Of a stretch of 64,000 nt of DNA, positions 20,882 to 51,636 are shown one piece after another (the first letter of the stretch is position 1; each line of letters begins with the position of its first letter). Source of the stretch: Candidatus Anstonellales archaeon (GTDB lineage Archaea > Micrarchaeota > Micrarchaeia > Anstonellales > CG1-02-47-40); the NCBI GenBank assembly GCA_038869735.1, contig JAWCQO010000006.1:1-64000 (forward strand). The letters are read 5' to 3'. Made by a program: the position numbers and the translations under genes. The notes beneath the pieces were generated by a model. It was not told the DNA's origin. It ran no database searches and saw nothing but the letters and a program-made list of their open reading frames with translations.

Positions 20882-20906
20882 ATTCAAAAAAATGGACTCG
20901 GGGGGA

Positions 20907-20940
20907 TTTACGAGAGGCCCAATACAAAGTAAGGCCTGTA
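20907..20940 (-). other. tRNA-Ala intron 2 (T-loop, position 59/60)
   Basis: 34 bases. T-stem GGGGG/CCCCC forms the outer helix, both bulges are AAT, the middle helix is TTCG/CGTA with one T-T mismatch, and the intron arm pairs ACAGGCC with GGCCTCT (one mismatch). Cutting AA^T at both sides restores the seven-base loop TTCGAAT. Confidence 0.85.
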
Positions 20941-20962
20941 TTCGAACCCCCAGCCTCCTGCA

Positions 20963-20983
20963 TTATGGGGTAGCGTTTTTCCC
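20963..20983 (-). other. tRNA-Ala intron 1 (canonical position 37/38)
   Basis: 21 bases. A bulge-helix-bulge forms: anticodon stem CCTGC/GCAGG, 3' bulge AAT, four-pair helix ATGG/CCAT, 5' bulge CAG, then GG/CC. Cutting after the second base of each bulge leaves A37 joined to T38, giving a seven-base anticodon loop. Confidence 0.88.
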
Positions 20984-21028
20984 TGCCATGCAGGCGCGCT
21001 ACCATTGCGCCACAAGCCCATCTACGTG

Positions 21029-22228: not shown

Positions 22229-22238
22229 TATTTAAAGC
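22229..22238 (+). promoter_or_regulatory. TATA box of tRNA-Gln
   Basis: ATATTTAAAG is centred about 29 bases before the first base of tRNA-Gln. Confidence 0.6.
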
Positions 22239-22284
22239 TCTCCAAGAATATTATCTTCAAATAGCCCCATCGTATAGTGGTCAA

Positions 22285-22306
22285 ATCCTACTACTTCGGA
22301 GACCAA
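22285..22306 (+). other. tRNA-Gln intron 1 (D-loop)
   Basis: 22 bases inserted just before the 3' half of the D-stem. TGGTC pairs with GACCA across the insert, with three-base bulges AAA and AAG, and TCC pairs with GGA inside; there is no outer helix directly stacked on it, so this is a relaxed form of the bulge-helix-bulge. Removal gives a nine-base D-loop AGTGGTCAA and a four-pair D-stem. Confidence 0.85.
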
Positions 22307-22322
22307 GTACGTCGGGCTCTGG

Positions 22323-22340
22323 AATAAAGCCTGTGGAGAA
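22323..22340 (+). other. tRNA-Gln intron 2 (canonical position 37/38)
   Basis: 18 bases. Outer helix TCGGG/CCCGA, 3' bulge AAA, middle helix CTCT/GGAG, 5' bulge GGA. Cutting after the second base of each bulge joins G37 to A38. Confidence 0.88.
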
Positions 22341-22383
22341 ACCCGAAAACATCGGTTCGAATCCGATTGGGGCTATTTTATTC

Positions 22384-23841
22384 TTACTTCTTTTCTTCAA
22401 CTACAAGTGCGCTCCACCAAGGTTTCTCTTCCTTTAAGATATCGCTGGTGTTTGCATCAACCACAAATGTGCGACTAACTTTTATCGGAATCAATCCCAA
22501 AAGCTTTCCGTCTTTCTCTGCATCAACGACATAGGCTGCTTTCTTCTCATCCTCAACTATTCTTATTTTCTTTGGACTAATTCCAAGTTTGTTTGCTACT
22601 TCAAAGGGCGAAACCTTTACTTCTCCCTCCCCAACCTTTATGGCATTCTGGGAAAGAACTATTTTTTGAACTTCAGCCTCCACTCCTCTATCGCTGACTA
22701 AAACTTTATCAGATACAGGTTTTATCTCAACTTTGCTCTTTTTGCTGACATTTGCTTCAACCACCTTTCCCTCTGCCTTAACTTCAACTTTTCCTGCCTT
22801 TAGTACCTTTGGTGAGATTTCAATTTCCTCAACTATTTCTCCAACTTCAGAGGCTTCTATTTTCTTTTTTCTTTCAAGAAGCTCTTCAATAAGTTTGTCT
22901 ATCTCACTTCTAAGGCTGCGGAGAGACTTTATCTGCTCATCCAAATTGCTATTCTCCTTAGTAATTACAGACGCAATTTTATTTTTGTAATAGCTCACTA
23001 TCTCTTTACCGCTATCTGGAGCTACTGGCTTTATTGGTTCATATTCCTCGCTACCGCCAATCTCAGCAACTTTCTCCTTTTGAAGCTCACATTTCTCTTT
23101 AAGCTTATCCATTCCCTCATCCAATTTCTCTAGTATTTCTATAACTTTTTCCTTGTTAAGATCCGCCTCCCGCATTTTGTCTTCACTTGCAAGCATATCT
23201 TCATAAACCATTCTCTTTTTCTGCCACGCCTCAAGTTCTGCGCAGTACCCAACTCCAATTCTTCTGGCTACATCAGAAACCTTCTCTCCGCTTCCACTTT
23301 CCCTTGCCACCTCAGATACTATACTACCGGGTCTACCGGGTTCCTCCCCCCTTTCATTTTCCTTAATTTTCGCTGCAAGGCACATCTCCTTTCTTTTTAC
23401 TATCTCCTTTTTGAGTTCAACTACTTTTTGATTAATCTCTCTCGCTGTCTTCTCATCATTTTTGCCTATAGCTTCTAAGTACTCCTTTTCATACATCATT
23501 ATCTTTTTCACCATCTCCTCATTAACCACACCATCTTCGCACCTTTTTATCAGCGCTCCAATATTGGAGACACTTCTGCTTGTCCCATCCATTCTGTTTA
23601 TTGTAGCATTCACAGATGGAAGGGGTTTTGGAAAAACAGGCGCATCTCTAATGGTTTTGTTTGTTCTGTCTGTCGCTACGTCCGATTCATTAAGTATAAT
23701 CAGCTTAACTGCATAATCGCCCCTCTCTATTCTATAAGGGGCGGCTGCCGGCTGCACATTCCCCCCTCCATAATACTGGGCAAAAATTGAGAAAGAAAAT
23801 AAAAAAGCAAGGAACACAAAAACAACCATCCTCAGTTTCAT
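22384..23841 (-). CDS. Secreted coiled-coil protein of unknown function
   Basis: 485 residues with a clear signal peptide (MKLRMVV then ~15 hydrophobic residues, cut after Ala ~21). A region of ~80-330 is Lys/Glu-rich and predicted helical or coiled coil with a few Cys; the last ~150 residues contain repeated beta strands and a segment ending in FVVDANTSDI, recalling PepSY-like or hinge domains of archaeal envelope proteins. No membrane anchor is seen at the C-terminus. I do not recognise the family. It lies between two intron-bearing tRNA genes, and its stop is nine bases from the tRNA-Gln gene on the other strand. Confidence 0.75.
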   Translation of the reverse strand: MKLRMVVFVFLAFLFSFSIFAQYYGGGNVQPAAAPYRIERGDYAVKLIILNESDVATDRTNKTIRDAPVFPKPLPSVNATINRMDGTSRSVSNIGALIKRCEDGVVNEEMVKKIMMYEKEYLEAIGKNDEKTAREINQKVVELKKEIVKRKEMCLAAKIKENERGEEPGRPGSIVSEVARESGSGEKVSDVARRIGVGYCAELEAWQKKRMVYEDMLASEDKMREADLNKEKVIEILEKLDEGMDKLKEKCELQKEKVAEIGGSEEYEPIKPVAPDSGKEIVSYYKNKIASVITKENSNLDEQIKSLRSLRSEIDKLIEELLERKKKIEASEVGEIVEEIEISPKVLKAGKVEVKAEGKVVEANVSKKSKVEIKPVSDKVLVSDRGVEAEVQKIVLSQNAIKVGEGEVKVSPFEVANKLGISPKKIRIVEDEKKAAYVVDAEKDGKLLGLIPIKVSRTFVVDANTSDILKEEKPWWSALVVEEKK

Positions 23842-23967: not shown

Positions 23968-24071
23968 TGGGCCCACCCAGATTTTCGTCAAAACTCCGCA
24001 AGGAGATTTTGCTTCGAACTGGGGATATTCACCGTGTAAGGGTGACGTCTTAACCACTAGACCATGGGCCC
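23968..24071 (-). tRNA. tRNA-Val (anticodon TAC) with T-loop intron
   Basis: 104 bases, 73 after removing one insert. Acceptor GGGCCCA/TGGGCCC, D-stem GTCT/AGAC, anticodon stem TCACC/GGTGA with loop CTTACAC (anticodon TAC, no intron there), variable ATATC, T-stem CCCAG/CTGGG, T-loop TTCGAAT, discriminator A, no CCA. The insert is at 59/60, the same place as intron 2 of tRNA-Ala. Confidence 0.93.
23982..24012 (-). other. tRNA-Val intron (T-loop, position 59/60)
   Basis: 31 bases. T-stem as outer helix, middle helix TTCG/CGAA with four perfect pairs, bulges AAG and AAT, and an intron arm pairing CAAAA and CTCC with GGAG and TTTTG. Cutting AA^G and AA^T restores TTCGAAT. Confidence 0.88.
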
Positions 24072-50457: not shown

Positions 50458-51636
50458 CTAAGGCTGCACCCATTCTATCTCATAATATTCGTATTTGCTT
50501 CCAGGCAGTTCAATTCTCTTAATTAAGTAGTAAGTCACTGAGCTTTCCCTGTCAGCTATCCCAAGAAGAAGTTCTAACCCTGCTTCCTTGCATCTTTCAA
50601 TTGCAATAGCAAGCTCAGCTCCACCTATCTCCTCCTCCTCTGAAAGAGACATCATCAAATAACGCGGCTTTCCATCCTTTGGCGTCTCTATCCCTCCCTT
50701 GTGCCTATGGTACAAGATATAATTCAGACCAACGTCAATCTTTTCCTCGCCTCTCACTCTTTTTCCCGGAATTGCAAGTATAAATGTTTTCTTTACAGAA
50801 TGAGCAACCCTAATTGCACGTGCCCATTCTGATATTATCATACGACTCTTTCTCGGGAATACGTGAATGACGTGCCTTGAGTGCACCCACTCCCCAGCAG
50901 GCTTCACTGGTGAGGCTCCTGGAAAATAAAGCCTAAAATGCGTTCCAAATTTGAAGCCAGTTTTTAGTATAAAACCGCGCATCCTCCAGTCTTCATAGAC
51001 CTCATAAAGGGATGAGAAATCCGTTCTAAGTCTTTTAGCTGACCTAACAAGCTTCTTCTCATCCATTCCATAAATGCACAGATTTCCGTTTCTCACCATG
51101 AATAATGTCTCATATATGTCTAACTTGCCTATCTTCCCTCTCTGCTCCGCTTTATACGAAGCAAACTGCCCCATCCAATATCGCTCATAAATTTCTCGGG
51201 CAGCATGTTCATCGTCAATGATGCAGGTCAAGTCGCCTTCAAAGAAACGCCCCTGAAGCGAATATTTGTCCATTTCAAATTTTCCTTTTGGATACTTCTT
51301 AACAGGATTTCTCCCATAGTTTTTTTTCCAGTCAAGTTCACATATAGGCCGCGCAATAAGTCCTCTATCCCTCCAATCCTTATATGTAAAATATTTTGCC
51401 ATCTGCTTTTTTGAAGGAAAAAGCGAAGCTACATCGTTAAAGAGCATAACATTTCCATTCTTATCGTAACACTTTGCATTCCTAATGTCAATTAAATAAA
51501 GTGCTTCCTCAGGATAAAGATGAACCACTCCCTTTTTTATTACTCCATAATGCCCATTGACTAAAGATGAGACACTCTGAGGTTCTAGGCATACTATTTC
51601 TTTCGTTTTTCTGTTTATCTCTATGTATATGGCCAT
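50458..51636 (-). CDS. endA: tRNA-splicing endonuclease, epsilon-2 (ARMAN) type
   Basis: Cuts introns at bulge-helix-bulge motifs in pre-tRNA. 392 residues in one chain, the three-unit architecture of ARMAN enzymes: an N-terminal unit, a middle catalytic unit and a C-terminal structural unit. The triad reads as Y237 (HFRLYFPG), H252 (EWVHSRH) and K283 (HSVKKTF). From memory, the ARMAN-2 enzyme uses Y236, H251, K282 and a special loop lysine K161; K162 fits here with the same offset. That loop lets it cut non-canonical introns, which occur in all three tRNAs of this window. A GGGAGGA precedes the ATG. Confidence 0.93.
   Translation of the reverse strand: MAIYIEINRKTKEIVCLEPQSVSSLVNGHYGVIKKGVVHLYPEEALYLIDIRNAKCYDKNGNVMLFNDVASLFPSKKQMAKYFTYKDWRDRGLIARPICELDWKKNYGRNPVKKYPKGKFEMDKYSLQGRFFEGDLTCIIDDEHAAREIYERYWMGQFASYKAEQRGKIGKLDIYETLFMVRNGNLCIYGMDEKKLVRSAKRLRTDFSSLYEVYEDWRMRGFILKTGFKFGTHFRLYFPGASPVKPAGEWVHSRHVIHVFPRKSRMIISEWARAIRVAHSVKKTFILAIPGKRVRGEEKIDVGLNYILYHRHKGGIETPKDGKPRYLMMSLSEEEEIGGAELAIAIERCKEAGLELLLGIADRESSVTYYLIKRIELPGSKYEYYEIEWVQP

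What the first reader, a model, noticed from the sequence alone, without database searches (positions are those of the whole stretch)
22263..22375. tRNA-Gln with an intron in the D-loop as well as at 37/38
The D-stem and the anticodon stem each pair only after removing a 22-base and an 18-base insert. The D-loop insert uses a relaxed motif without stacked outer helix. D-arm introns are rare; two introns in one tRNA are known mainly in Thermoproteales.
Basis: seen in the sequence. Interest (0 to 1): 0.8.

Follow-up and report, generated by a model that had tools for sequence, protein, structure and literature searches.

The report
Archaeal tRNA-Gln with two introns
A glutamine tRNA gene of a tiny archaeon (Micrarchaeota) is interrupted by two short removable inserts, one in its D-loop and one beside its anticodon; the reading is right and well supported by relatives, but such tRNA introns are a known kind and are common in this lineage.

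Summary
Window 22263-22375 (+) is the only tRNA-Gln(CTG) gene found in this Micrarchaeota genome. It has a 22-nt insert in the D-loop (22285-22306, position 21/22) and an 18-nt insert at 37/38 (22323-22340). A covariance model built only from other genomes finds it at 68.9 bits (E 4e-17) with both inserts in these places. The spliced 73-mer keeps every stem pair, including a compensatory C12-G23 to A12-U23 change across the D-loop insert. Relatives lack either insert exactly at the predicted joints. Four genomes of another family carry the same pair of introns at the same two sites. The window encodes a three-unit (epsilon-2) splicing endonuclease with its catalytic and ARMAN-loop residues; the genome encodes RtcB ligase. 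Splicing itself is inferred, not shown. In passing: in the sister genome 33 of 34 parsed tRNA genes are interrupted, with related introns in different tRNAs, which suggests intron transposition.

The parts
22231..22237 (+). TATA-box-like TTTAAAG, 26-32 nt upstream of the tRNA
   Evidence: read from sequence; not tested
22263..22375 (+). pre-tRNA-Gln(CTG), whole gene
   Evidence: Rfam 45.8 bits; independent Gln model 68.9 bits
22263..22284 (+). exon 1: acceptor 5' strand, D-stem 5' strand, D-loop to A21
22285..22306 (+). D-loop intron, 22 nt, at 21/22 (slides to 20/20a with the same product)
   Evidence: same site in G024, G044, G045, G047, G049
22278..22305 (+). D-loop splice motif: central helix UGGUC 22278-22282 with GACCA 22301-22305; 3-nt bulge AAA 22283-22285; inner helix UCC 22286-22288 with GGA 22298-22300
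   Evidence: fold; conserved in six genomes
22307..22322 (+). exon 2: D-stem 3' strand to position 37; anticodon CTG 22319-22321
22323..22340 (+). canonical intron, 18 nt, at 37/38; central helix CUCU 22317-22320 with GGAG 22335-22338; bulges GGA and AAA; outer helix is the anticodon stem
22341..22375 (+). exon 3: position 38 to discriminator A73
22376..22395 (+). T-rich stretch just after the tRNA, possible terminator
   Evidence: read from sequence; not tested
50458..51636 (-). three-unit (epsilon-2) tRNA-splicing endonuclease, 392 aa; triad Y237/H252/K283 and loop Y161/K162 equal ARMAN-2 Y236/H251/K282 and Y160/K161
   Evidence: Pfam; full-length match to 4fz2, E=1e-130; residues mapped

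Best explanation
A functional pre-tRNA-Gln(CUG). The transcript folds into a cloverleaf whose D-loop and anticodon loop are each extended by a short hairpin of the bulge-helix-bulge type. The window's own epsilon-2 endonuclease cuts at the bulges (strict BHB at 37/38, relaxed HBh' in the D-loop). RtcB, encoded on contig C1, joins the exons into a 73-nt tRNA that reads CAG. The D-loop intron is an old or recurrent insertion at a favoured site of tRNA-Gln(CUG) in Micrarchaeota.
For: Independent model, 68.9 bits. 100% of stem pairs kept in 18 spliced tRNA-Gln sequences; 10 of 21 pairs have a change on both sides, including D-stem 12-23 (AU in the window, CG in most others). Insert-free relatives continue exactly at the predicted joints: G005 lacks the D-loop intron, G024 lacks the anticodon intron, G016 and G017 lack both. 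Same double-intron gene in G044, G045, G047, G049. D-loop intron structure shared by six genomes, 5 pairs with both sides changed. 4-bp central helix at all nine joints tested (eight in D-arms, one at 37/38; chance about 0.03-0.06 each). Endonuclease and ligase present. ARMAN-2 epsilon-2 enzyme cleaves BHB and relaxed introns (PMC12397907, PMC6379350). CAG used 219 times in 35 larger ORFs of the window.
Against: No RNA data. The tRNA-Gln(TTG) could in principle read CAG by wobble, so the gene need not be essential. The nearest genome, G001, lacks the D-loop intron and has a T-loop intron in this tRNA instead.
Confidence: 0.95

Rival explanations
1. Pseudogene: a tRNA-Gln(CTG) broken by two chance insertions and no longer used.
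For: The other Gln tRNA (TTG) could cover both codons; the raw Rfam score is modest.
Against: All stems pair, with compensatory change across the insert; both inserts have a BHB-type central helix at the joint; the same architecture persists in other genomes; 24 of 39 recognised tRNA genes of this genome are interrupted, including the only copies found for His, Tyr and Asp.
Confidence: 0.03
2. Only the 37/38 insert is spliced; the D-loop insert stays in a tRNA with an enlarged D-loop.
For: The D-stem can pair with the insert in place; the D-loop motif is not a strict BHB.
Against: Retained, it would make a 31-nt D-loop and pair GACC with the GG needed for the D-loop/T-loop contact; five relatives keep the same cut-site geometry with changing inner helices; epsilon-2 enzymes cut relaxed motifs (PMC12397907).
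Confidence: 0.02
3. Assembly or binning artefact.
For: The genome is a 15-contig assembly.
Against: Both inserts have ordered splice structure and counterparts at the same sites in other genomes.
Confidence: 0.005

Closest known systems
Noncanonical and multiple archaeal tRNA introns of Thermoproteales (e.g. Pyrobaculum islandicum tRNA-Pro(UGG) with 25/26, 37/38 and 56/57; PMC4090602)
   Same: BHB or relaxed introns, a D-arm intron together with the canonical one in one gene
   Different: Crenarchaeota with an alpha2beta2 enzyme; other tRNA and other D-arm site
Multi-intron tRNAs of ARMAN-1 and ARMAN-2 (Ca. Micrarchaeum; listed in PMC4033280)
   Same: same phylum, same epsilon-2 endonuclease type
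   Different: their tRNA-Gln genes were not compared; the primary paper (Fujishima 2011) is not held here
   Same: introns at 21/22 and 37/38, same central helix and bulges
   Different: D-loop intron 28-30 nt with a longer inner helix

Membership tests
tRNA-Gln(CUG) | cloverleaf with anticodon CUG and archaeal Gln A1-U72 pair | tested here: met
tRNA-Gln(CUG) | charged with glutamine | not testable with these tools
   needs RNA
archaeal BHB tRNA intron (37/38) | 4-bp central helix flanked by two 3-nt bulges, outer helix the anticodon stem | tested here: met
   CUCU:GGAG, GGA/AAA; the inner helix is weak
archaeal BHB tRNA intron, relaxed (HBh') in the D-loop | 5' bulge of 3 nt between central helix and inner helix | tested here: met
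   UGGUC:GACCA, AAA, UCC:GGA; same in five relatives
archaeal BHB tRNA intron, strict, in the D-loop | 3' bulge of 3 nt next to a stacked outer helix | tested here: not met
   2x1 internal loop to the D-stem in the predicted fold
archaeal tRNA introns | excised by splicing endonuclease and exons ligated | not testable with these tools
   enzymes present, reaction not shown
epsilon-2 splicing endonuclease | single chain of three units with catalytic Tyr/His/Lys and ARMAN-specific loop Tyr-Lys | tested here: met
   PMC12397907

The most novel reading that the evidence does not exclude
Micrarchaeota are a hot spot of tRNA intron gain outside Thermoproteales: D-arm introns recur at a few fixed sites of tRNA-Gln, and in the sister genome (CG1_02_47_40) related introns sit in many tRNAs at the T-loop and at 37/38, which suggests spread by intron transposition alongside the broad-specificity epsilon-2 enzyme.
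Probability: 0.6. Interest if true: 0.5.

Novelty: new member of a known kind. Interest (0 to 1): 0.32.

Why it matters
By itself it adds one more two-intron tRNA. With its relatives it gives a clean natural series (no intron, D-loop only, 37/38 only, both) in one tRNA, useful for dating intron gain and loss and for testing what the epsilon-2 endonuclease accepts. It also warns that standard tRNA finders can miss or truncate much of the tRNA set in this phylum.

Tried and rejected
ARAGORN finds no tRNA in the window. A BLAST of the gene at genus level returned only the own genome. Two key papers on the ARMAN enzyme (10.1093/nar/gkr692, 10.1093/nar/gks826) are not held. The sigma-70 promoter and terminator scan found nothing and does not suit archaea. 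I considered a split (trans-spliced) tRNA for Val(CAC) on contig C10, whose 5' part the Rfam match lacked; the missing part lies just upstream, so it is a D-loop intron in one gene. My parser misplaces the insert in G037, G061, G066, G068 and G051; reading the sequence by eye places it near 25/26. The D-loop intron has no second copy in the window and no relative among the other recognised introns of this genome.

Full report
What it is. The window lies in G000, an 884-kb, 15-contig genome. Its endonuclease is 76% identical to that of Candidatus Micrarchaeota archaeon CG1_02_47_40, and most of the other nearest matches are Micrarchaeota. Genome G001, the only other member of the same family in the set, is very probably that organism: the length of its contig C11, 274513, equals that of MNVE01000016.1.

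The gene. Rfam finds a tRNA at 22263-22375 (+), 45.8 bits. A structure search that allows introns with a BHB central helix gives as its best parse AGCCCCA TC GTATAGTGGTCAA^GTAC G TCGGGCTCTGG^ACCCGA AAAC ATCGGTTCGAATCCGAT TGGGGCT A, with 22 nt removed at the first mark and 18 nt at the second. A covariance model trained on 16 spliced tRNA-Gln(CTG) sequences from other genomes finds the unspliced locus with 68.9 bits, E=4.4e-17, and inserts at the same two places. The D-loop joint can slide over four positions without changing the product.

Structure of the precursor. Left to itself, the 113-mer folds with all four stems and two extended loops, -39 kcal/mol, z=-2.98 against shuffles. In the D-loop: D-stem, 2x1 internal loop, UGGUC:GACCA, bulge AAA, UCC:GGA. 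At 37/38: anticodon stem, 3-nt bulge AAA, CUCU:GGAG, then the other bulge GGA.

Evidence from relatives. In 18 spliced tRNA-Gln sequences every cell of the 21 stem pairs is a standard pair, and 10 pairs show changes on both sides; sliding the partners by one base drops the paired cells to 56% or less. Pair 12-23 is A-U in the window and C-G in the other CTG genes of that alignment, a compensatory change across the D-loop intron. G005 has only the 37/38 intron, G024 only the 21/22 intron; G016 and G017 have neither. A survey of 84 genomes of the order, with the long matches fetched and parsed, found the window's own combination (21/22 plus 37/38, tRNA-Gln(CTG)) in G044, G045, G047 and G049, all of one genus in another family. 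D-loop introns at 15/16 occur in G019, G008, G034, G022, G054, G081, G078, G080 and others, and at about 25/26 in G037, G051, G061, G066 and G068 (read by eye). In all, I count 23 genomes with a D-arm intron in a tRNA-Gln, the window's own included; this is a lower bound because weak matches were not read. The six 21/22 introns fold alike: 17 pairs, five with both sides changed.

Chance. For nine inserts (seven genomes; eight in D-arms, one at 37/38) the joint has a 4-bp central helix each time; shuffling the insert gives this in about 3-6% of trials for each. The nine are not all independent (some are homologous), and some joints were first placed with this helix in mind, so this is supporting evidence only; the presence or absence of inserts in relatives is the stronger test.

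Machinery. The endonuclease at 50458-51636 (-) aligns over its full length to the ARMAN-2 epsilon-2 enzyme 4fz2 (E=1e-130). The triad Y236/H251/K282 and the loop residues Y160/K161, described in PMC12397907 as taking part in cutting and broad specificity, are all kept. RtcB is encoded at C1:47972-49276.

Is it a pseudogene? The only other Gln tRNA found is TTG and intronless. By my parse 24 of 39 recognised tRNA genes of this genome are interrupted, with 30 introns: about 13 in the T-loop, 2 in the D-loop, the rest at or near 37/38. Interruption is therefore normal here and no sign of decay. The count rests on my own parser and partly on reading by eye; some T-loop joints are approximate.

Compared with what is known. 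D-arm introns at 20/21, 22/23 and 25/26 and multi-intron tRNAs are described, most of all in Thermoproteales (PMC4090602, PMC3218864), and ARMAN-1 and -2 are already listed as having multi-intron tRNAs (PMC4033280). Species with the ARMAN-type loop are known to have diverse introns (PMC6379350, PMC12397907). This is a new member of a known kind.

Shown versus inferred. Shown: gene, inserts, conservation, compensatory change, presence of enzymes. Inferred: transcription, cutting at the named bonds, ligation, use in translation. In the sister genome G001, introns of different tRNAs share sequence, which suggests how introns spread in this lineage; no such sharing was seen in the window's genome.

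Noticed in passing
window 20893-21019 (-): tRNA-Ala(GGC) with a 21-nt intron at 37/38 and a T-loop insert of about 34 nt (3' joint approximate).
   Followed up: partly
window 23968-24071 (-): tRNA-Val(TAC) with a 31-nt T-loop intron.
   Followed up: partly
L018 about 157-266 (G000:C10): tRNA-Val(CAC) with a 37-nt D-loop intron at 15/16; the sister genome G001 has a 23-nt intron at the same place.
   Followed up: partly
L171-L190, L200-L207 (G001, CG1_02_47_40): 33 of 34 parsed tRNA genes are interrupted, most in the T-loop; a few of the 34 parses are poor.
   Followed up: partly
L172, L183, L253, L255, L254 (G001): T-loop introns of different tRNAs share sequence (e.g. Thr-TGT and Asn-GTT, 91% over 98 nt); similar sequence also in an anticodon intron of a Ser-like tRNA, and one copy lies outside any recognised tRNA: likely intron transposition.
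   Followed up: partly
L038 about 151-337 (G000:C1): tRNA-Trp(CCA) with an intron of about 110 nt; whether it holds a C/D guide RNA, as in some other archaea, was not tested.
   Followed up: no
L020 (G000:C2): tRNA with anticodon TAT (Ile) in place of the usual archaeal CAT tRNA for AUA; also in G001.
   Followed up: no
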